A stretch of DNA of 64,000 nucleotides. Origin: Xanthomonas euvesicatoria pv. euvesicatoria. Its GTDB lineage: Bacteria > Pseudomonadota > Gammaproteobacteria > Xanthomonadales > Xanthomonadaceae. Where the stretch lies: the NCBI RefSeq assembly GCF_020880415.1, contig NZ_JAJIUJ010000119.1, positions 1 to 64,000 of the forward strand, written 5' to 3'. The translations under genes and the position numbers were made by a program. Numbering within the stretch: position 1 is the stretch's first letter; every line of letters starts with the position of its first letter. Below are positions 2,296 to 14,032 of the stretch, in pieces. The notes beneath the pieces were generated by a model that was not told where the DNA came from, ran no database searches, and worked only from the letters and a program-made list of their open reading frames with translations.

Positions 2296-4596
2296 TCAGA
2301 ACTTCGCATCCAGCGTCAAGAACACTTGCCGCGGCGCACTGGCATGGAAGGCCAGCTGGCGGCCGTTGGGATCGCTATTGGCGAAGGCCGTCAGGTTGGA
2401 GGCGTAACGCTTGTCGGTGAGGTTGGTGACATTGAGCGAAAGCTTGAGCCCCTGCAGCACGCCAACCTGGCCGAAGTCATAACCACCGCCCGCATCGAAG
2501 GCGGTGTAGCCGCCGAAGCCCTGGTCGTTGGTGTAGGTGTAGTAGCGCTGGCCGGTGTATTTGCCGCGCAGGTTGAGATTCCACGGCCCGTAATTGAAGG
2601 CCAGTTCGCTGGCGAACATGCGCTTGGGCGTGTCGACGGTGTATTTGCCGGCGGTGGGAATCACCACGCCGTTCTGCACGTAGTTGTCGTCGTAGGTCGA
2701 ACGGTTGATCGAGGCCGAGTTGTACCACTGCAGGTAGCTGGTTGGCTTCCAGATCACCGTCAGTTCGCCGCCGCGGCTGCTCACCGAGCCCACGTTGAAG
2801 AAGCGCGTGGTGCATGCGGGCGTGGTGCCCTGCTGGATGCTGGCGCAGGGGTTGAGCGAAAGCAGGCGGTTATCGAAGGTGACGTCGTAGCCGACCAGCG
2901 AGGCTTCGAAGCGGTCGCGCACGAAGCGATAGCCGGCTTCCAGCGTGCGCGATTTCTCCGGCTCCAATGCGCCGACGCTGGCATCGAACGAGGCCTGGGT
3001 CACCAACAACGGGCCACCGGCGCCGCCGCCCTGGAACGCGGCGATGTTTTCCGCGTACGAGGCGAACACTTCCTGGCCTTCGGCCAGGCGATAGCCCACG
3101 CCGATCTGCGGCAACACCGATTCGCTGGCCTTGAGCGAACCGGTGGCCACCGGCGCTTCCACTGCCACGCCCGGCGTCTCGCGCGCGGTCATTTCGGTGC
3201 TCGGGCTCTTGATGCCCAGGTCCAGGCTCAGACGCTCATCCAGGAACTTGAAATTGCCCTGCACGTAGAACTGCCGCGTGGTGATGATGTAGTTCTGCGA
3301 GAACAAACGGCGATTGGGATTCTGAAGGAACTTGTCGTCGCTGACCGGACCATCGATCCAGTAGAAATTGCGCTCCACATCGTGGTGATTGCGCTCGTAC
3401 CACAGGCCCGCTTCCAGATGATGCGGGCCAAGGTCCCAACCGAGCGAAGCGATGCCGCCGGTGCGGTTGATCCAGTAATTGGTGCTGCGGATGGAAATCG
3501 GCAATGCCTGCGGCGTACCCGGATTGGACGCCTGGCCCGGCGACCACCAGTGGCCCTGGCCCTTGTTCTCGTGGTGATAGACCTGCGTGTGCAGGCTGAT
3601 CGCATCGTTGGGCTGGAAATCGCCGGCCACGTAGAACAGGTCGTCGTCGCGCAAGGCGCGGCTCTGGTAGTACGCATCGTCGATGTTGTCGACACCGCCG
3701 CTGAAACCGCAACGCGCGGCATTGCGCGTGGCCGGTGCGCAATACGCCGCAGCCAATGCGCGGTTCCAGTCCGGCGCGTACAGATTCCAGTCCCAGCCCA
3801 GGCCGCGCGCCATGCCGCTCTTGGACAGGTACGCATAGTCGGCCTGCGAAGTACGCGAGGTATCGGCGAATGCGGTCAGCTTGCCGCCATCGAACTGGTA
3901 CACGCCCTTGGCATTGAACTGCCGCGTGGTGGTCGGCGATTCCGGGCGCGCCCACATGTCGGCTTCGGCGTTGATGCCGGACACATACGCCGAAAACCCG
4001 TTGTAATCGCCGGTATCCACGCGCAGGAAGGTGCGCCGATTGGCATCGGAGCCCACCGTCTGCGACACCTGCCCGCCGAATACGCTGGACGGATCGGCCG
4101 AGTAATACTGGATGGTGCCGCCCAGGTTGCTGGTCGACGCCGTGCCCAACGCACCGATGCCCGAGGCCAGCTCCACGCCGCCGAAGTTTTCCGCAATCAA
4201 TGCGCGGCTGATGTTGAGGCCGTTGTAGTTGCCATAGGCGTTGTCGCCCAACGGCAGGCCGTCGAGCGTATAGCCCAGGCGCGTACCGTTGAAGCCGCGC
4301 AGGCTGATCGTCTGCGATTCTTCGTTGGCACCGAACGCATCGTTGGATTGCACGTTCACGCCCGGCATGCGGTTGAGCAGCTTCTGGATGCTGGTGCCCG
4401 GTGGCAACACCGCAATGTCCTGCGGGGTGATGCGCTGCACCTGGCGGGTTTCGCCCTGGCCGATCACCGACACCGCATCGAGTTGCTGCACGGTCGCACC
4501 GGTATCGGCAGACACCTCAGGGTCGGCGGCGTAAGCGGCAGGCGCGAGCACGAGCGCGGCGAGAACGGCGGCACTTAACTGATGGGTCTTGGGCAT
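2296..4596 (-). CDS. TonB-dependent outer-membrane receptor
   Basis: A 766-residue outer-membrane receptor. The ATG at 4596 begins a clean signal peptide (MPKTHQLSAAVLAALVLAPA, cleavage after AYA); the frame upstream of it is unlikely to be translated. A TonB-box-like stretch (LDAVSVIG) follows, then a plug domain from about residue 70 with the SLRGFNGTR and GTIQYY segments. A long beta-barrel ends in a C-terminal Phe (LTLDAKF), the usual outer-membrane assembly signal. Uptake would be powered by TonB-ExbB-ExbD such as that encoded at 23.6-26.7 kb. The plug resembles ferric-siderophore or dicitrate receptors, but I cannot assign a ligand. It is divergent from the acid phosphatase. Confidence 0.88.
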   Translation of the reverse strand: MPKTHQLSAAVLAALVLAPAAYAADPEVSADTGATVQQLDAVSVIGQGETRQVQRITPQDIAVLPPGTSIQKLLNRMPGVNVQSNDAFGANEESQTISLRGFNGTRLGYTLDGLPLGDNAYGNYNGLNISRALIAENFGGVELASGIGALGTASTSNLGGTIQYYSADPSSVFGGQVSQTVGSDANRRTFLRVDTGDYNGFSAYVSGINAEADMWARPESPTTTRQFNAKGVYQFDGGKLTAFADTSRTSQADYAYLSKSGMARGLGWDWNLYAPDWNRALAAAYCAPATRNAARCGFSGGVDNIDDAYYQSRALRDDDLFYVAGDFQPNDAISLHTQVYHHENKGQGHWWSPGQASNPGTPQALPISIRSTNYWINRTGGIASLGWDLGPHHLEAGLWYERNHHDVERNFYWIDGPVSDDKFLQNPNRRLFSQNYIITTRQFYVQGNFKFLDERLSLDLGIKSPSTEMTARETPGVAVEAPVATGSLKASESVLPQIGVGYRLAEGQEVFASYAENIAAFQGGGAGGPLLVTQASFDASVGALEPEKSRTLEAGYRFVRDRFEASLVGYDVTFDNRLLSLNPCASIQQGTTPACTTRFFNVGSVSSRGGELTVIWKPTSYLQWYNSASINRSTYDDNYVQNGVVIPTAGKYTVDTPKRMFASELAFNYGPWNLNLRGKYTGQRYYTYTNDQGFGGYTAFDAGGGYDFGQVGVLQGLKLSLNVTNLTDKRYASNLTAFANSDPNGRQLAFHASAPRQVFLTLDAKF

Positions 4597-4788
4597 GAGC
4601 GGCGTTGGGGACGAGTCAAAAGATGGCGGCAAGCGTGCGACAGTTGTCTTGCGTCGATGCGACCGAAACATGACAGTGCAACGACAACCGTTTCGCATCC
4701 CTGGCCGTTGCTGCGTCGCGTTGGCATGCAGCTGTCATCGAGCCGTCGTAATCTGCGGGCTCTTCCATTTGTGTTGTCTGAGGTTGCC

Positions 4789-5646
4789 ATGTCGCAGCGC
4801 ATTGCTTGCCACTCTCACCGGACGCTGGTCAGCGTTGCCATCGCCGCATTGTTGATCGGCAGCGGCATCGCAAGTGCACGGGACAAGGCAGCCGCGAAAG
4901 ATTCGGTGCTAGCCACCGACGCGCATGGGTACCTGGAGAAACAACAACTGCCCGACAGCGTGCAGCTGGTGCCACCGCCACCGCAGGAGGGCAGCGCTGC
5001 GCTCGCCAACGACGAGGCAGTCGCCAAGGCCATGCTCGCCCTGCGCGGGACACCGCGCTGGGAGCTGGCCGCGGAGGACGCGGTGCTGAGCTTTCCGGCT
5101 GCGGCCACGCACTTCAGCTGCGCGCTGGGCATACAGATCGACCAGGCCAGCACCCCGCATCTGATCCGTCTGCTCGAACGCAGCATGCGCGATGCCAGCA
5201 CCGCGACCAGCGCCGCCAAGGCACGCTATCAACGCCCGCGTCCTTTCATGCGCAACGCGCAACCGATGTGCACCCCGGCCGATGACGCGGCCCTGCGCAA
5301 GAACGGTTCCTACCCCTCCGGCCACACCGCCATCGGCTGGACCTGGGGCCTGATCCTGTCCGAAATCGCCCCCGCCCACCGCGACGCCCTGCTCGCGCGC
5401 GGCCGCGCCTTCGGCGACAGCCGCCTGGTCTGCAACGTGCACTGGCAGAGCGATGTCACCCAGGGCCGCGTGGTAGGCGCTGCCACGGTCGCCGCATTGC
5501 ACGCCAATCCTGCGTTCGAAAAAGACCTGGCCGCCGCACGCCGCGAGATCGAACAGGCGCAGGCCAAGCAGCCGGCTGCGTCCTCGGTGGCTGCGTGCAA
5601 CGCGGAAAACCAAGCGCTAGGGACCGCATTGCCTGGGGTGCTGTAG
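4789..5646 (+). CDS. Class A (PAP2-type) non-specific acid phosphatase, exported
   Basis: A 285-residue protein with a signal peptide (LVSVAIAALLIGSGIASA). The three PAP2 phosphatase motifs are complete: KX6RP (KARYQRPRP), PSGH (GSYPSGHTA), and SRX5HX3D (DSRLVCNVHWQSD). Spacing and length fit periplasmic class A bacterial acid phosphatases (PhoN/PhoC type), which release phosphate from diverse organic monoesters. The ATG at 4789 is chosen because it starts the signal peptide; the open frame further upstream lies in the divergent promoter region shared with the TonB-dependent receptor. The co-location suggests, but does not show, a nutrient-scavenging role. Confidence 0.85.
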   Translation: MSQRIACHSHRTLVSVAIAALLIGSGIASARDKAAAKDSVLATDAHGYLEKQQLPDSVQLVPPPPQEGSAALANDEAVAKAMLALRGTPRWELAAEDAVLSFPAAATHFSCALGIQIDQASTPHLIRLLERSMRDASTATSAAKARYQRPRPFMRNAQPMCTPADDAALRKNGSYPSGHTAIGWTWGLILSEIAPAHRDALLARGRAFGDSRLVCNVHWQSDVTQGRVVGAATVAALHANPAFEKDLAAARREIEQAQAKQPAASSVAACNAENQALGTALPGVL

Positions 5647-5809: not shown

Positions 5810-7150
5810 TCACTTGCCGATGCAAAAACTCGAGAAGATCTTGCCGAGCAGGTCATCGGCACTGAGCTTTCCGGTGATCTCGCCGAGTGCTTCATGCGCC
5901 AGGCGCAGTTCTTCGGCAGCCAGTTCCAGCTGCTCGAAACCCAGTTCCAGATCGGCAGCGTCCACGTGTTGTTCGGCGCGACGCAGCGCCTGAACATGCC
6001 GTGTGCGGGCAGAGAATTCGCCCTCGACGCTGTCCACGCCATCGCCGAGCGCAAGCGCGCGCAGGCGGATGTGCAATTGCTCCAGTCCCTGTCCGGTCAC
6101 GGCAGAGACAGCGATCGCATTGGCATCGAGCGATACGGCATTGCCGAGCAGATCGCATTTGTTGTGGATCCACAGCTGACGCGGCACGGCATCGATGGCA
6201 TCGCCAATGGCATCGCGGGCGGCCTGCGGGTCGCGTGCATCCAGCACCACCAGTGCCAGGTCCGCGCGCTCCAGCTCGGCGCGTGCACGGCGCATGCCTT
6301 CGCGTTCGATCGCATCGCCGCCATCGCGCAGGCCGGCGGTATCGACCAGGGTCAACTCGAAGCCGTCGAGCTGGATGGCTTCGTGCAAGGTGTCGCGGGT
6401 GGTGCCGGCGACATCGGTGACGATCGCCCGATCGCTACCGGCCAGCGCATTGAGCAAGGAACTCTTGCCGGCGTTGGGCGGACCGATCAACACCGCATGC
6501 AGGCCGTCGCGCAACTTGCGTCCGCGTTCGGCATCGCGCAGCAGCTGGGCGAGCACGTTGCGCGCCTGACCCAGACCATCGCGTAGTTGGTTGCCGCCCA
6601 AGGTGTCGAGCGGCTCGTCGGCAAAGTCGATGGCCGCTTCCACGTGGATACGCAGGCGGGTCAGTGTGTCCGCCACCGCATCGACCCGTCGCGAAAACAC
6701 CCCGTCCAGTGCGCGCCGCGCGGCGCGTGCCGCCCGCAGGTCGCCGGCTGCGATCAAGTCGGCAATCGCCTCGGCCTGTGCAAGATCGAGCTTGCCGTTG
6801 AGAAATGCACGCTCACTGAATTCACCGGCGCGTGCCTGGCGGGCGCCCAGTTCGATGCAGCGGGCAACCAGTTGCCGCAACAGCACCGGGCTGCCATGGC
6901 CTTGCAGCTCGACGACGTCTTCGCCGGTAAAGCTGTGCGGCGCGTTGAACCACAGCGCAATGCCATCGTCGATGACGGCGCCCTGCCCGTCGCGAAAACG
7001 CGCGTAGTGCGCATGCCGCGGCTGCATCCGCGCAATTCCCAGTTGCGCTGCAATCTGCACCGACTGCGCCCCGGACAGGCGCACGATGCCCACGCCGCCG
7101 ATTCCGGCAGCACTGGCGATGGCAACGATGGTCGAAGCGGAAGACGACAT
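5810..7150 (-). CDS. mnmE: tRNA uridine-34 modification GTPase MnmE
   Basis: A 446-residue GTPase that with MnmG installs the carboxymethylaminomethyl group at C5 of wobble uridine in certain tRNAs. An N-terminal formyl-THF-binding domain ([19 protein letters not shown]) is followed by a helical region and an inserted G domain: G1 [10 protein letters not shown]3 [10 protein letters not shown]4 NKCD. The C-terminal CIGK, with the catalytic Cys, is intact. The ATG at 7150 gives the canonical MSSSAST start. It lies downstream of the caspase-deacetylase gene and about 3 kb from yidC; the mnmE-yidC-rnpA-rpmH neighbourhood is a conserved origin arrangement in gammaproteobacteria. Confidence 0.97.
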
Positions 7151-7306
7151 GGGCACTGCTCTACGTGGATTGAAAAAGGACACCTGTAGTTTAAACGGCG
7201 CAGTCAACAACGCCGACCCACATATTTGCGGGCACTTTTGAATCACCTCCCATGACGACATCCGCGCTGTCTGGCGTCTGCACGCCATGTCGTGTCGCGC
7301 GTCCGG

Positions 7307-10009
7307 TCACAACGATTGCAGCTGTGCGCGCGCCTGCTCGGCACCACTGCCTTGCGGCTGCAATTCCAGGTAGGTGGCATAGGCCTTGCGCGCCTTGTCG
7401 CGATCGCCTGCCTTGGCATATGCATCGCCGAGATTGAGATAGGCCACCGCGCGCGAGGGATCGATCTTCAAGGTATTTTCCAGCCAGCGCGCCGATTCGG
7501 CAAAGCGCCCCTGACGGTAATACACAAAGCCCAGGTTGTTGGCCGCCAGCGCGAAATCCGGACGCAGCTTCAGTGCCTCGGCAAATTGCTCGGCCGCATC
7601 GGCATAGCGCTTTTCCTTGTACAACTGCAGGCCGCGTTCGTTGGCCAGTTGTGCACGTTGGCGATCGCTGCTCTTCGCTGCGGTGGGCAACACCAGCGTG
7701 GCCTGGCCACCTTGCAGTGTCTTCACCGTCACCGGCACTGCAGCCACTGCCACACCGGCTGCGGCCGGCACAGGGCGCGCTGCGTCCACACGTGAGTTGA
7801 GCGCAATCGCATCGGCCGACAGCTGCGCGGTCTGCGCAGTGAGAAATTCTTCGCCGCTGGGAACCTGGAACACGAATTCGCCGCCTTGCGAACCGGGCAG
7901 GCTGCCGAATGCCGGCGTCTGCGCCGAGACTGCCGACACCGCGGGCGCCACGTACGCGGCCAGTTCGGTTCCGGTGATCAAGCCATCGCCATTGAGGTCG
8001 CCCTTGCCAGCCAATGCCTGCAACAGCACCCAGGTGAACACCGAATGCCCATTGGGCCCGCTATCGGCCACCTGTTGATCGGCGCCGCCGGCGGTGAGCA
8101 TCTGGCGCGCGATACGCCGCGCGTTCTCGCGCAGATACGCGCTGGACGTCGGCCCGCCGCGCGTCAATCCCAGCCCGCTGTAGCACGCATCCATCACGAA
8201 CAAGACGTGCTTGGCCTGCAGGCTTTCGGCGATGTTCTGCAAATCGCTCATTGCGATCGCATCGCTGGCCAGATGCTGCGGGTCCGAGTCGACCGGAATG
8301 ATGTAACCCAGATCGCGACCGGAAGCGAGCCGTCGTGTGGCGCCATGCCCGGCAAAGAACACGAACACGCGGTCGTTGGTTTGTGCACGGCCTTCGCCGA
8401 GGCGGTCGTGGAATGCGGCCAGGATATTGTTGCGCGTGGCCTGCCCGTCCTTGAGCACGATCACTTGCGAGGACGGAAACCCCAACGGCCCGGTCAGGGT
8501 ACTGGCAATCGCCTGCGCATCGTTGGCCGCATAGTCCAGCTTGGGCCAATGCGCGTAGTCGTCGATGCCGATCACGATCGCCCACGATTTCGCATAGCCG
8601 GTGGTCACCGTGGCATCGGCCGCCGCGCCGGGTGCGCGCGCGACCGAGAACTCGCGGCCATTCCAGCCGGCGAACTGGTAACCGTCGGCGATGAGACGAT
8701 CCAGAATCTGCGGCAGCGCCTTCACTGCGCGGTCGTGGATGTCATGAAACAGCACGATGCCGCGCTGGTCCTTGTTCACTTGATCGAGCACGCGTTGCAC
8801 GATGGATTCCGGCACCGGATCGGCCCAGTCCAGCGAGTCGATGTTCCACATGATCGATTTCAGGCCGGCTTCGCCCAGCAGCTGCAAGCCTTCCGCATTG
8901 CGTGCGCCATACGGAAACCGGAACAGCGGCGCGCGCTTGTCGTCCACTGCACGCAGCAAGGTGTCGGTATCCAGAACCTGGCGACGCAGTGCATCGCCGG
9001 TGGTCTTGGACAACTGTGCGTGGGTGAGGCTGTGGTTCCCCACCGCATAGCCTTCTTCCATCAGCGAATGACTGATCTTCGACAGCGGCGCAAGTTGCGG
9101 TTTGCCGTTGGCATCCAGGCTGCCGAGGTTGCGCCCCACTTCGAAGAACACGCCGGGCACATCGTAGCGCTTGAGAATCGCCACGATCTCTTCGGTGTAG
9201 GCCTTGTGCGGGCCATCGTCGAAGGTGAGCACCACTGTCTTGGGCGGCAGGTCGCGGCCGAACACTTCGCTGTCGCTGTCGCGCGCGGCGAACGGGTACG
9301 GCTCGACCACGCCATGGTCGCGCAGGATGTTCTCGCGCGTATAGAGCGTGCGCAACTGCGCCACGTAGTCGCCCCATTTCTCGCGCTTGGGCACGATGGC
9401 GCGGCTGCGATCGAAACGGCTGAAGATCTGCGTCAACTCCTTGTTGTAGCTGCGCTCGATCTCGTCCAGCGCCTCCAGATCCTCGCCGATGCGCTGATGC
9501 AGTTTCACCGCCGGCAATGCAGAGTCGCGGCCGATGCGCGCATGCAGATCGCGCAGCACCTCGGCAAATGCCAGGCGGTCGGCATCGAACAGATCCGACG
9601 CAGATTCCACCTCGTCCAGCACTGCGGAAATCGTCGCGAACCGGCGTGCATCCTTGGAAGCCAGAATCGTGTCCAACGATGCGGCAATGCGTTCGCGCTG
9701 CTCCAGGTTTTCGTGAAACAACTGCTGGCCCACGCTGCTGGAGGTGGCGCGATCGCGTGGCGTTTGTTTGTCCTCATCGGCCAGCAGCACGATGATGCGG
9801 CGGTGCCGGTCCAGCTGTTCGCGCAGTTGAGCGATCAATGCACCGGTGGCGTTCCCGGTCTTGTCCGCCTGCGTGCCAGCGCTCGTTGCAGCCGCGGGCT
9901 TCGCAGCGCCGGCAGCATCGCTGGCGTCCTGCGTGCCGCAGCCGGCCAACGCCAGCACTCCCACGCAACTTGCGCACAGCAACAGGCGATGCAACGGCGA
10001 TGTGGTCAC
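7307..10009 (-). CDS. Lipoprotein: polysaccharide deacetylase + caspase-like + EF-hand + TPR
   Basis: A 900-residue multidomain protein. The GTG at 10009 has AGGA 7 nt upstream and gives a short lipoprotein signal with lipobox LAGC (Cys24); a further GTG lies at 10042. A helical region to about residue 240 precedes a NodB-type polysaccharide deacetylase with TFDDGP near 262, NHSLTH, RFPYGAR and LFHD motifs. From about 480 comes a peptidase C14 domain with catalytic His in FFAGHG (near 556) and Cys in DACYSG (near 609). A calcium-loop-like DLNGDGLITGTE follows near 670, then at least two TPRs from about 790. All catalytic residues appear intact. Likely membrane-anchored in the periplasm; function unknown, and the fusion is unusual. 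Confidence 0.85.
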   Translation of the reverse strand: MTTSPLHRLLLCASCVGVLALAGCGTQDASDAAGAAKPAAATSAGTQADKTGNATGALIAQLREQLDRHRRIIVLLADEDKQTPRDRATSSSVGQQLFHENLEQRERIAASLDTILASKDARRFATISAVLDEVESASDLFDADRLAFAEVLRDLHARIGRDSALPAVKLHQRIGEDLEALDEIERSYNKELTQIFSRFDRSRAIVPKREKWGDYVAQLRTLYTRENILRDHGVVEPYPFAARDSDSEVFGRDLPPKTVVLTFDDGPHKAYTEEIVAILKRYDVPGVFFEVGRNLGSLDANGKPQLAPLSKISHSLMEEGYAVGNHSLTHAQLSKTTGDALRRQVLDTDTLLRAVDDKRAPLFRFPYGARNAEGLQLLGEAGLKSIMWNIDSLDWADPVPESIVQRVLDQVNKDQRGIVLFHDIHDRAVKALPQILDRLIADGYQFAGWNGREFSVARAPGAAADATVTTGYAKSWAIVIGIDDYAHWPKLDYAANDAQAIASTLTGPLGFPSSQVIVLKDGQATRNNILAAFHDRLGEGRAQTNDRVFVFFAGHGATRRLASGRDLGYIIPVDSDPQHLASDAIAMSDLQNIAESLQAKHVLFVMDACYSGLGLTRGGPTSSAYLRENARRIARQMLTAGGADQQVADSGPNGHSVFTWVLLQALAGKGDLNGDGLITGTELAAYVAPAVSAVSAQTPAFGSLPGSQGGEFVFQVPSGEEFLTAQTAQLSADAIALNSRVDAARPVPAAAGVAVAAVPVTVKTLQGGQATLVLPTAAKSSDRQRAQLANERGLQLYKEKRYADAAEQFAEALKLRPDFALAANNLGFVYYRQGRFAESARWLENTLKIDPSRAVAYLNLGDAYAKAGDRDKARKAYATYLELQPQGSGAEQARAQLQSL

Positions 10010-10063
10010 GACGGCGTCCTTGGCGAAAGAGACAACAGGCACTCAATGCGGGCTGACATGCAG

Positions 10064-10088
10064 AAAGCCCGCCTTGCGGCGGGCCTTC
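10064..10088 (-). terminator. Terminator of the rpmH-rnpA-yidC transcript
   Basis: Perfect GC stem GCCCGCC/GGCGGGC with a 4-nt GCAA loop (minus-strand reading), located 7-30 nt beyond the yidC stop and followed by TTTC on the minus strand. The T-run is short. Confidence 0.6.
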
Positions 10089-10094
10089 TTGAAC

Positions 10095-11819
10095 TTACTT
10101 GGCGTTGGCCTGGATGATCTTGCTCGGCTTCTCGCCGTGCTGGCGGATCATCCACCACTGGATCAACAGGCCCAGCCCGCCGTTGACCACCCAGTACAGC
10201 ACCAGGCCGGCCGGCATGAAGGCCATCATGACGCCGAACACCAGCGGCATGAACTGCATCATCTTGGCCTGCATCGGGTCCATGCCCGGGGTCGGGGTCA
10301 GCTTCTGCGTCGCCCACATGATCGAGATGTTGAGCAGCGGCAGGATGAAGTACGGGTCGCGCGCAGTCAGATCCTGGATCCAGCCCAGCCACGGCGCCTG
10401 ACGCAGTTCCACCGACTCCACCAGCACCCAGTACAGCGCGAAGAAGATCGGCATCTGGATCAGCAGCGGCAGGCAGCCGCCCATCGGGTTGATCTTTTCC
10501 TTCTTGAACAGCTCCATCGTCGCCTGCTGGTACTTGACGCGATCGTCGCCGTAGCGCTCCTTGAGCTGCGCCAGGCGCGGCTGGAAGCGGCGCATCTTGG
10601 CACCGGACTTGTACTGGGCAGCCGACAGCGGATACAGCGCCAGGCGCAGCAGGACCACCAGGCCGATGATGGCCCAGCCCCAGTTGTGCAGGAAGCTGTG
10701 CAGATGGCTCAGCACCCAGAACAGGCCCTGGCCGATGATGGCCATGATCGAGAAGCGGCTGTAATCGACCACGCGGTCCAGGCCCTTGACGTCTTCCTTG
10801 GCGATCAGGTTGACCAGCTTCGGGCCTACCCACAGGCGCGCTTCGGTGCTGGCGGTCTGGCCAGGTGCCACGGTGAAGGCCGGGCCGCGCAGCTCGGCCA
10901 CGTCGCGCGGGCCGTCCTGGGCCAGCACGTACAGCGAGGCTTGGTCCTTCTGCGGAATCCACGCGGTGAAGAAGTGGTGCTGCAGCAGCGCTACCCAGCC
11001 GCCGGTGATCTGGCGATTCAGGCCGCCGTCGTCCATGTAGTCCTTGAACGCGCGGCGCTCGTAGCCTTCCTGCGGGCTGTACCAGGTCGCGCCATTGAAG
11101 CTGAAGGAATCCGGATTGGTCATGCCGCGGCTGAGGATGGTCGGCACCCGGCTCAGCTTCCGGAACACGTAGCCGTTCCACGGCGCGCCACTCTTGTTGA
11201 TCACCTCGTCCTTGATCGAGATGGCATAGCGGCCGCGCTCCAGGGTAAAGGTGCGACGGATCGAGACGCCGTCGGGGCCATTCCAGACGAACGGCACCAC
11301 CAGCGTGTTCTGGCCCTTGGCCATTTCGAACGTCGTGCCCGGCTGCTCGGCGCGGAAGCCGCCTACACCCGGCACCGGCGAATGCTCGCTGGCCCAGCCG
11401 CTGGTGGCGTTATACGGGTGCGCCGGATCTTCGGTCAGCAGGCTGACCGGCTCGGTGCCGTCCTTGGTCTGCGGGAATTGCAGCAGCTCGGCATCGAGCA
11501 CGCTGCGGCCATCCAGCTTCAGGCGCAGCACATCCGAGGTCAGGGTCACCACCGGCGCAGCGCCGGCAGCGGCCGGTGTTGCCGCAGTGCTGCTGGTCGC
11601 CGGCACCGTGCCCGGCGCGCCGGCCTGCGGAATGGGCTGGGCCGAAGGCACATTGGCCGCGCTCGGCGCTGCCGCATCCGGATCGCGCGCCGCCGGCACC
11701 GCCTGGGTGGCCGCGGCCACCGGCGCATTGGCAGCCGCCTTGTCCTTGCCCCACTCCATCCACAGCAACGCCGCGACCATCAGCCAGGCAAAAATCAGGA
11801 AAACACGGGTCTGGTTCAT
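10095..11819 (-). CDS. yidC: Membrane protein insertase YidC
   Basis: A 574-residue Oxa1/YidC-family insertase of the inner membrane. An N-terminal transmembrane helix ([18 protein letters not shown]) is followed by an Ala/Pro-rich linker, a large periplasmic beta domain, and the conserved C-terminal helices (for example [20 protein letters not shown]). It inserts membrane proteins alone or with SecYEG. It lies 25 bp downstream of rnpA in the rpmH-rnpA-yidC order. The gap leaves no room for yidD, which sits between rnpA and yidC in many bacteria. Confidence 0.97.
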
Positions 11820-11844
11820 CGGGCAGCAACTCGCTCAGTCGGAA

Positions 11845-12282
11845 CTACAGTTCCGGCTCTGTCGGGGAAGGGGAGGATGGGCGCACCGTCCTGGCGGGCG
11901 GCATTGTGCCGGGCGCAGCAGGCAGGGGCAATGCGCCGGCACGGCGCAGCAGACGCACGAAGGCATCGCGGATCTGTGGATTGGTCGCTTTTGCCGCCGC
12001 CGAGCGCGCCACGATGACGTAGTCACCACCGGCCAGCTCGGGCAATAGATGCCGCATGGCATCGCGCAGCACACGTTTGATGCGGTTACGTCCGACCGCG
12101 CGCGTATCGACCTTGCGCGACACGGCCATGCCCAGGCGCGGCGGCGTATCGCCGGTGCGCCAGTGCAGGCTCAGGAGTGGGTCCGAGGTGCGACGTGCAG
12201 TATCGAAAACGATCGTATATTGCGCACGCGTACGAACCCGCGCAGAGCGAGGAAATCGCCTGCACGGGTTCGATGCGTTCAC
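11845..12282 (-). CDS. rnpA: Ribonuclease P protein component
   Basis: A 145-residue basic protein subunit of RNase P, which assists the catalytic RNA in trimming the 5' end of pre-tRNAs. The RNR signature is present as [14 protein letters not shown], and the N-terminal [13 protein letters not shown] matches the family. I choose the GTG at 12282 ([10 protein letters not shown]); an alternative TTG at 12324 overlaps the rpmH stop as TTGA and would allow translational coupling. The C-terminal extension is Pro/Ser-rich. Cotranscription with rpmH is expected from the 38-bp spacing. Confidence 0.93.
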
Positions 12283-12590: not shown

Positions 12591-12703
12591 CTCTGGGAAA
12601 ACCCTGCCCTCGGTGCTAGTCTGGTCCATCCTCTTTTCACTACCGGGCTGCGAGCACGGCGCTTTTCTGCGCCCCGCGGCCGGCAACAGATGATCACACG
12701 TTG

Positions 12704-14032
12704 ATGGATGCTTGGCCCCGCTGTCTGGAACGTCTCGAAGCCGAATTCCCGCCCGAAGATGTCCACACCTGGTTGAAACCCCTGCAAGCCGAAGATCGCG
12801 GCGACAGCATCGTGCTGTACGCCCCGAACGCCTTCATCGTCGACCAGGTTCGCGAACGGTACCTGCCGCGCATCCGCGAATTGCTGGCGTATTTCGCCGG
12901 CAACGGCGAAGTCGCGCTGGCGGTCGGTTCGCGTCCACGTGCGCCTGAGCCGGCCCCCGCAGCGGCGGCGGTGCCAAGTGCGCCGCAGGCTGCGCCGATG
13001 GTGCCGTTCGCCGGCAACCTGGATTCGCATTACACCTTCGCCAACTTCGTCGAAGGCCGCAGCAACCAGCTGGGTCTGGCCGCCGCGATCCAGGCGGCGC
13101 AGAGGCCCGGCGACCGCGCGCACAACCCGTTGCTGCTGTACGGCAGCACCGGCCTGGGCAAGACCCACCTGATGTTCGCGGCCGGCAATGCGCTGCGTCA
13201 GGCCAATCCGGCCGCCAAGGTGATGTACCTGCGTTCGGAACAGTTCTTCAGCGCGATGATCCGGGCGCTGCAGGACAAGGCGATGGACCAGTTCAAGCGC
13301 CAGTTCCAGCAGATCGATGCGCTGCTGATCGACGACATCCAGTTCTTCGCCGGCAAGGACCGCACCCAGGAAGAGTTCTTCCACACCTTCAACGCGCTGT
13401 TCGATGGCCGCCAGCAGATCATCCTGACCTGCGACCGCTACCCGCGCGAAGTGGAGGGCCTGGAGCCGCGCCTGAAGTCGCGCCTGGCCTGGGGCCTGTC
13501 GGTGGCGATCGATCCGCCGGACTTCGAAACCCGCGCGGCCATCGTGCTGGCCAAGGCACGCGAGCGCGGCGCCGAAATTCCCGACGACGTGGCATTCCTG
13601 ATCGCCAAGAAGATGCGCTCCAACGTGCGCGACCTGGAAGGCGCGCTCAACACCCTGGTGGCGCGCGCCAACTTCACCGGCCGCTCGATCACGGTGGAAT
13701 TTGCCCAGGAGACGCTGCGCGATTTGCTGCGCGCCCAGCAACAGGCGATCGGCATTCCCAATATCCAGAAGACCGTGGCCGATTACTACGGCCTGCAGAT
13801 GAAGGACCTGCTGTCCAAGCGGCGCACCCGCTCGCTGGCGCGCCCGCGCCAGGTGGCGATGGCGTTGGCCAAGGAGCTCACCGAGCACAGCCTGCCGGAG
13901 ATCGGCGACGCGTTCGCCGGCCGCGACCACACCACCGTGCTGCATGCCTGCCGGCAGATCCGCACGTTGATGGAGGCCGACGGCAAGCTCCGCGAGGACT
14001 GGGAAAAGCTGATTCGCAAGCTCAGCGAGTAG
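12704..14032 (+). CDS. dnaA: Chromosomal replication initiator DnaA
   Basis: A 442-residue AAA+ initiator that binds DnaA boxes and opens the origin. Domain I ([20 protein letters not shown]) and a short Ala/Pro linker precede the ATPase: Walker [10 protein letters not shown] near 147, Walker [10 protein letters not shown] near 207. The C-terminal DNA-binding domain carries the DnaA signature [12 protein letters not shown] near 405. The ATG at 12704 is preceded in frame by a TTG at 12701; the ATG gives the canonical MDAWPRCLE start. It is divergent from rpmH and followed by a 276-bp gap with DnaA boxes. Confidence 0.98.

What the first reader, a model, noticed from the sequence alone, without database searches (positions are those of the whole stretch)
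7307..10009. A lipoprotein joining a deacetylase, a caspase-like protease, an EF-hand-like loop and TPRs
One 900-residue chain carries a NodB-type polysaccharide deacetylase with TFDDGP, HSLTH and RFPYG motifs, a peptidase C14 (caspase-like) domain with His (FAGHG) and Cys (DACYSG), a calcium-loop-like DxNxDG stretch and TPRs, behind a lipobox. The catalytic residues of both enzymes look intact. Caspase-like proteins occur in bacteria, but I do not know this combination from standard family descriptions. A membrane-anchored, possibly calcium-gated cysteine protease tied to polysaccharide editing is a reasonable hypothesis.
Basis: partly seen in the sequence, partly recalled or inferred. Interest (0 to 1): 0.8.

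Follow-up and report, generated by a model that had tools for sequence, protein, structure and literature searches.

The report
Exported deacetylase–metacaspase protein of Xanthomonas
A Xanthomonas envelope protein joins a sugar-deacetylating enzyme to a caspase-like protease; the combination has been in print since 2012, but the sequence indicates that it works outside the cytoplasm, which does not fit its published link to apoptosis-like cell death.

Summary
One open frame (7307-10009, minus strand, 900 aa) encodes a lipobox signal, a helical domain, a complete CE4/NodB deacetylase, a caspase-fold C14 domain with an EF-hand loop, and TPRs. It is no chimera: in 77 intact copies (window included) the catalytic residues are invariant. 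The combination is not new: PMC3501461 (2012) described it as the 'Xanthomonas-type metacaspase' and linked it to programmed cell death. What I add: (1) It carries export signals: a lipobox in 56 of 58 xanthomonad-type copies, an N-terminal hydrophobic helix in 18 of 18 betaproteobacterial ones. (2) The protease has the S1-pocket aspartates of Arg/Lys-cutting metacaspases, so the DEVD-cleaving activity measured in dying Xanthomonas may have another source. (3) The EF-hand block is the most conserved in the chain. (4) Of 35 same-genus genomes 16 keep it intact; the rest have damaged, remnant or no copies. I favour a membrane-tethered, calcium-bound periplasmic enzyme that deacetylates a GlcNAc polymer, probably peptidoglycan, and cuts envelope proteins after Arg/Lys. 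Location rests on sequence signals only; substrates and calcium control are inferred.

The parts
7307..10009 (-). CDS, 900 aa from GTG 10009 (911 codons from GTG 10042): exported CE4 deacetylase - C14 metacaspase - EF-hand - TPR protein
9938..10009 (-). lipoprotein-type signal peptide and lipobox LAGC (Cys35 of the 911-codon numbering, codon 9940-9938; +2 residue Gly)
   Evidence: direct reading; lipobox by pattern in 56 of 58 xanthomonad-type intact loci
10017..10021 (-). AAGGA Shine-Dalgarno-like site, 7 nt before GTG 10009
   Evidence: direct reading
9278..9868 (-). N-terminal helical domain (about residues 59-255); no Pfam match, no PDB sequence match better than E 0.15
   Evidence: five long helices, ten-residue pLDDT means 74-90 in that stretch of the model
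8648..9277 (-). CE4/NodB deacetylase domain (residues about 256-465), motifs MT1-MT5 intact
7838..8593 (-). C14 caspase-fold domain (residues about 484-735): His566, Cys620, S1-pocket Asp508 and Asp618, conserved Arg628 in a low-confidence loop
7964..7999 (-). EF-hand-type calcium loop DLNGDGLITGTE (residues 682-693) inside the C14 p10-like part
7319..7642 (-). TPR repeats (residues about 801-908)
10062..10089 (-). hairpin with a 12-bp stem and GCAA loop between the yidC stop and this gene, terminator-like with a short T run
   Evidence: -24.5 kcal/mol, z -5.4; the pattern scan lists no terminator in 7200-10200

Best explanation
The gene makes an exported, membrane-tethered two-enzyme protein. 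In Xanthomonas it leaves the cytoplasm by a lipoprotein-type signal, is expected to be lipidated on Cys35 and, with Gly at +2, sent to the periplasmic face of the outer membrane. The CE4 domain removes N-acetyl groups from a GlcNAc polymer that it meets there, most likely peptidoglycan. The C14 domain has a metacaspase/paracaspase-type fold and cuts a periplasmic or envelope protein after Arg/Lys (possibly itself at Arg628). The EF-hand loop fills with Ca2+ at periplasmic concentrations and holds the p10-like half in its active shape, which would keep the protease quiet in the low-calcium cytoplasm before export. The C-terminal TPRs hold the partner or substrate. Shown by sequence: domains, invariant active sites, export signal, EF loop, conservation. 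Inferred: lipidation, outer-membrane sorting, both substrates, calcium dependence, TPR role. It is probably not the cytoplasmic, DEVD-cutting executioner of Xanthomonas cell death.
Against: No experiment on location or activity was found. The +2 rule is recalled and was set in E. coli; the betaproteobacterial copies look inner-membrane anchored, so outer-membrane location is not a shared feature; L077 has no lipobox. No substrate is shown, and CE4 sequence does not fix it. The EF loop does not track export in a wider C14 sample: one search was given 62 non-family loci; 30 (L161-L190) were dropped because their Cys motif escaped my pattern and 8 for a cut 5' end; of the 24 left, 5 had the loop (4 called exported, 1 not) and 19 lacked it (12 exported, 7 not), Fisher p 0.63; an earlier export rule gave 4/1 and 8/11, p 0.32. 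The classifier is crude and missed signals visible by eye (for example L129). Many exported C14 proteins lack the loop, so calcium is no general need there. No shared neighbour gene points to a substrate. MALT1, metacaspases and caspases lie within about 3 Z units, so the fold alone does not settle specificity.
Confidence: 0.5

Rival explanations
1. Programmed-cell-death executioner, as proposed in print: a caspase-3-like protease that is switched on in protein-rich medium, cleaves cell proteins and kills the cell.
For: PMC3501461 (passages and section 10) links the homologous gene of X. campestris pv. glycines (GI 88792532) to cell death and to cross-reaction with caspase and PARP antibodies; PMC4006831 (passages) reports DEVD-cleaving activity in X. 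campestris 8004.
Against: Export signals put it outside the cytoplasm; the S1 pocket predicts Arg/Lys, not Asp; the activity was measured with DEVD reagents; the same laboratory reports a caspase-3-like protein in E. coli, which lacks metacaspases (PMC3501461 abstract); none of 14 control genomes has a C14 match at E 1e-15; 19 of 35 same-genus genomes lack an intact copy, though whether those species show such death is not known to me.
Confidence: 0.12
2. Self-releasing deacetylase: the C14 domain's main substrate is the protein itself; cutting at Arg628 or in the linkers frees the CE4 or TPR part when calcium or damage signals.
For: Arg628 is invariant in 32 of 32 rows of A3 in the one internal stretch of the C14 model with pLDDT under 50 (model residues 149-159); PMC3501461 notes a 55-kDa caspase against about 100 kDa predicted and suggests auto-processing; orthocaspases autoprocess (PMC5756287 passages).
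Against: A cut at Arg628 would give pieces of about 594 and 283 residues (from Cys35), not an obvious 55 kDa; low pLDDT with few sequences is weak evidence of flexibility; the Arg is also present in the two signal-less relatives in A3 and may serve another purpose.
Confidence: 0.2
3. Envelope defence or stress sensor: the protein responds to phage entry or wall attack and damages its own cell.
For: PADLOC 'caspase' profile match E 1.9e-21; two of the closest signal-less C14 relatives carry a candidate defence domain, PDC-S65 (E 2e-43 and 9e-52); patchy retention in the genus.
Against: Fixed place beside housekeeping genes: yidC and mnmE flank it in 55 of the 62 loci L033-L094, mnmE alone in 3 whose other side is cut, neither in the 4 beta-labelled bins; no PDC-S65 match in the window protein; very low dN/dS is unlike what I recall of fast-evolving defence genes.
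Confidence: 0.1
4. Exopolysaccharide maturation: a PgaB-like deacetylase lipoprotein for a secreted GlcNAc polymer, with the TPR part docking on an exporter.
For: CE4 plus lipoprotein plus TPR resembles the Pga/Alg export logic (recalled); one beta-labelled locus, L073, has a glycosyltransferase-like ORF next to it (by eye).
Against: The PgaB profile TIGR03938 scores 27.1 bits against a cut-off of 321.9; no shared neighbour was seen in 17 flanks, of which I read only the first 50 residues of each ORF and ran no profile.
Confidence: 0.1

Closest known systems
Xanthomonas-type metacaspase (Asplund-Samuelsson et al. 2012, PMC3501461)
   Same: PF01522 deacetylase, then metacaspase, then 1-3 TPRs; intact His-Cys; beside trmE (mnmE); reported there in Xanthomonas, Stenotrophomonas, Xylella and two Acidobacteria
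   Different: In the main text 'EF-hand' and 'calcium' do not occur, and 'lipoprotein' occurs once in another context; the passages and sections that I saw give no export signal, S1 pocket, betaproteobacterial branch or broken copies for this family. Figures and supplements were not seen
CE4 peptidoglycan deacetylases (PgdA, PdaC, Bd3279)
   Same: all five CE4 motifs; among the best solved relatives by sequence and fold
   Different: fused to a protease and TPRs; in a Gram-negative envelope
Metacaspases and paracaspase MALT1 (C14B)
   Same: fold, His-Cys dyad, acidic S1 pair
   Different: carries an export signal and an EF-hand-type loop in the p10-like part; fused to CE4 and TPR
Signal-less C14 proteins with PDC-S65 domain (L116, L117)
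   Same: among the closest C14 domains found here outside the family, 43% and 40% identity
   Different: no export signal, no calcium loop, no CE4 or TPR match, candidate defence C-terminus

Membership tests
Xanthomonas-type metacaspase | CE4 domain, then C14, then TPRs in one chain | tested here: met
   CE4 and TPR in 38 of 38 members of A1, C14 in 37 of 38 at E 0.001
Xanthomonas-type metacaspase | conserved Cys-His dyad | tested here: met
   77 of 77
Xanthomonas-type metacaspase | neighbour of trmE/mnmE in xanthomonads | tested here: met
   window; of loci L033-L094, 55 of 62 have yidC and mnmE, 3 mnmE only (other side cut), 4 beta-labelled bins neither
Xanthomonas-type metacaspase | molecular weight 97-100 kDa | not tested
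   not computed (900 aa)
Xanthomonas-type metacaspase | role in programmed cell death | not testable with these tools
   literature passages only
CE4/NodB deacetylase | motifs MT1-MT5 with the metal-binding Asp-His-His set | tested here: met
   (motif names recalled)
CE4/NodB deacetylase | de-N-acetylation of a GlcNAc polymer | not testable with these tools
   no assay
C14 metacaspase/paracaspase/orthocaspase (C14B) | caspase fold with p20 and p10-like parts, His-Cys dyad | tested here: met
C14 metacaspase/paracaspase/orthocaspase (C14B) | two S1-pocket Asp residues for basic P1 | tested here: met
   D508, D618; role
C14 metacaspase/paracaspase/orthocaspase (C14B) | proteolysis after Arg/Lys | not testable with these tools
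   no assay
Animal caspase (C14A) | basic S1 pocket for Asp at P1 | tested here: not met
   acidic pair at the pocket positions by sequence alignment; not tested by assay
EF-hand | 12-residue loop DxNxDGxIxxxE between two helices | tested here: met
EF-hand | match to an EF-hand profile | tested here: not met
   no EF-hand family listed at E 0.1 in Pfam, so it is an EF-hand-type loop, not a member of a Pfam EF-hand family
EF-hand | binds calcium | not testable with these tools
   -
Bacterial lipoprotein | signal peptide with lipobox | tested here: met
   (pattern and hydropathy, no SignalP)
Bacterial lipoprotein | lipidation | not testable with these tools
   -
PgaB PNAG deacetylase | TIGR03938 above cut-off | tested here: not met
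   27.1 bits against 321.9
PDC-S65 candidate defence protein | PDC-S65 C-terminal domain | tested here: not met
   not listed for the window protein at E 0.1, present in L116 and L117

The most novel reading that the evidence does not exclude
A compartment-gated caspase: a metacaspase-type protease whose EF-hand loop and export signal belong together, so that it stays off in the low-calcium cytoplasm and is switched on by periplasmic calcium, coupling de-N-acetylation of peptidoglycan to proteolysis of envelope proteins in one tethered chain. The two-decade-old 'bacterial caspase-3' activity of Xanthomonas would then belong to another enzyme.
Probability: 0.3. Interest if true: 0.75.

Novelty: already known. 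Interest (0 to 1): 0.42.

Why it matters
This family is a molecular candidate cited for apoptosis-like death in Xanthomonas (PMC3501461). If it works in the periplasm and cuts after Arg/Lys, the DEVD-based evidence must have another source, and the question becomes directly testable, helped by natural species without the gene. It would also be a clear case of a caspase-fold protease put to use in the bacterial envelope.

Tried and rejected
Assembly chimera: rejected by full-length orthologues in many genera. Plasmid mobility: 0 of 72,556 plasmid records hold 80% or more of the protein, 5 hold a partial match (E 1e-20). Operon with mnmE as a clue to function: 22 loci (18 betaproteobacterial-type, 4 beta-labelled bins) have neither yidC nor mnmE beside the gene, flanks differ, and a hairpin parts it from yidC. 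Full-length AlphaFold model: poor (mean pLDDT 65.3, pTM 0.33), used only for the helical, CE4 and TPR parts; no statement on domain arrangement is made. N-terminal helical domain: no PDB sequence match better than E 0.15; its fold was not searched alone; the weak PADLOC PD-T4-6 match (E 1.3e-4) is taken as a helical coincidence, not tested. EF loop against export: tried, not significant, not used as proof. Literature searches. Papers: PMC3501461 (abstract, passages, sections 10 and 12), PMC6426788 (passages, section 17), PMC5756287, PMC4006831, PMC4933709, PMC3715506, PMC3902798, PMC2810307 (passages only); the other papers were seen as search listings. The original Gautam, Sharma and Wadhawan papers were not read.

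Full report
What is there. It lies between yidC (10095-11819 -) and mnmE (5810-7288 -) (Pfam), near dnaA (12701-14032 +, recognised by eye). Pfam gives a polysaccharide deacetylase, a caspase domain and TPRs, all well over their cut-offs. The window is the start of contig 25 of a 5.3-Mb genome that has one C14 match at E 1e-15. The genus is taken to be Xanthomonas because same-genus contigs match named ones in length (for example G008:C14 and a Xanthomonas prunicola contig, both 67,820 bases); the species was not sought.

Is it real. One search confirmed 152 stretches and kept the best 80: Xanthomonas, Stenotrophomonas, Pseudoxanthomonas and, at 58-64% identity, Polaromonas, Rhodoferax, Massilia, Duganella, Undibacterium, Thiobacillus and some unnamed bins. 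I dropped four (L037, L065, L093 frame-split; L076 cut) and aligned 77 rows including the window. The five CE4 motifs, the His and Cys motifs, the S1 Asp pair and the EF-loop ligands are invariant. The most conserved 20-residue block of the chain is the EF-hand block 681-700 (0.97). In six pairwise comparisons inside Xanthomonas dN/dS is 0.02-0.08 in CE4, 0.02-0.04 in C14, 0.03-0.06 in TPR and 0.10-0.29 in the helical domain.

Where it works. Of the 58 intact xanthomonad-type loci (L033-L094 less the four dropped; the four beta-labelled bins and the mislabelled L089 included) 56 match a lipobox pattern 30-90 residues before the first conserved motif; L039 has APAGC, by eye also a lipobox, and L077 has none. 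A stricter rule with a hydropathy filter found 51 of 72 rows (18 of the 21 misses are the betaproteobacterial rows; four rows were not scored there). The +2 residue is Gly in 43 of the 56, Ser in 7, Gln in 3, Arg in 2, Asp in 1. The 18 betaproteobacterial loci L095-L112 have instead a hydrophobic 19-residue stretch (mean hydropathy 1.69-2.59), mostly after basic residues, and no lipobox. Two different anchors on one family both place the enzymes on the periplasmic side. PMC3501461 treats location only in general (section 12) and in the passages seen does not call this family exported.

What the protease should cut. The C14 model matches MALT1 and metacaspases best and animal caspases a little less well (rows within one Z unit are ties). 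Asp508 and Asp618 align with the conserved Asp residues of yeast Yca1 and stand, by motif, for TbMC2 Asp95/Asp211, which hold basic P1 residues (PMC6426788 section 17). The published Xanthomonas activity was measured with DEVD reagents (PMC4006831 passages), and that laboratory reports a caspase-3-like protein also in E. coli, which lacks metacaspases (PMC3501461 abstract). I read this as evidence that the DEVD activity and this gene are different things; it is not proof.

The calcium loop. DLNGDGLITGTE fits the EF-hand consensus at positions 1, 3, 5, 6, 8 and 12 (consensus recalled) and lies between two helices of the model, although no Pfam EF-hand family is listed at E 0.1. The four closest C14 relatives found outside the family (L026, L116, L117, L118) show no export signal and no ligands there. 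Five other C14 loci have the loop (L122, L123, L125, L126, L147; four called exported), but many exported C14 proteins lack it, and the association is not significant. EF-hand motifs in 7 archaeal orthocaspases are in print (PMC6426788 passages), so the loop in a C14 protein is not new in itself. Structural filling by periplasmic calcium is the safer reading; gating is a hypothesis.

History of the gene. Of the 62 loci L033-L094, 55 have yidC and mnmE on its two sides, 3 have mnmE and a cut other side, and the 4 beta-labelled bins (L068, L072, L073, L075) have neither. In the tree (quick method) the 18 betaproteobacterial rows lie on one side of a fully supported branch and 59 rows, window included, on the other; the four beta-labelled bins nest among Stenotrophomonas and Pseudoxanthomonas, which suggests transfer or wrong binning. 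Among 35 same-genus genomes (own plus 34): 16 intact, 1 with an in-frame deletion of about residues 92-267 (G017), 6 split by frameshifts or deletions (G003, G004, G011, G012, G027, G033), 2 with only a remnant (G007, G023) and 10 with none; in those 10 yidC and mnmE stand next to each other. So the gene is kept under strong constraint or lost, repeatedly and at different places: a useful but dispensable function. In the family 35 of 247 genomes (8 of 54 genera) have a match at E 1e-60, three of them broken copies; in a class-wide sample 3 of 369 at E 1e-50, all three in the family, so that sample showed none of the betaproteobacterial carriers.

How it most likely works is given under Best explanation, with shown and inferred steps marked. 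Against known kinds: the architecture, the trmE neighbourhood and the proposed death role were published in 2012 (PMC3501461). What the parts of that paper that I saw do not hold, and I add, are the export signal, the alternative anchor, the S1 pocket, the EF-hand loop, the betaproteobacterial branch and the losses. The searches for print are in an open-licence library; most subscription papers are not in it.

Noticed in passing
L116 (2971-4722), L117 (2875-4713); also L026, L118: Signal-less proteins with an N-terminal C14 domain close to this family; L116 and L117 (IMG/VR contigs) carry a C-terminal PDC-S65 candidate defence domain, as if a caspase had been swapped in as effector.
   Followed up: partly
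L021 (genome G017): An open frame of 742 aa in which the helical domain (about residues 92-267) is missing in frame while CE4, C14 and TPR parts remain: a natural variant or early decay.
   Followed up: partly
L068, L072, L073, L075: Metagenome bins labelled Betaproteobacteria/Azonexus carry xanthomonad-type copies away from yidC-mnmE.
   Followed up: partly
L089: A contig labelled Bacillus subtilis has a Stenotrophomonas-type copy with yidC and mnmE beside it; most likely contamination or a wrong label.
   Followed up: partly
window 7886-10117 (+) and 9846-12017 (+): Long antisense open frames of 743 and 723 codons over this gene and yidC; probably shadows of high-GC coding sequence.
   Followed up: no
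window 10062-10089: Strong terminator-like hairpin just after yidC in the gap before this gene.
   Followed up: partly
window 4582-5646 (+): PAP2-family phosphatase beyond mnmE, whose predicted start looks too far upstream.
   Followed up: no
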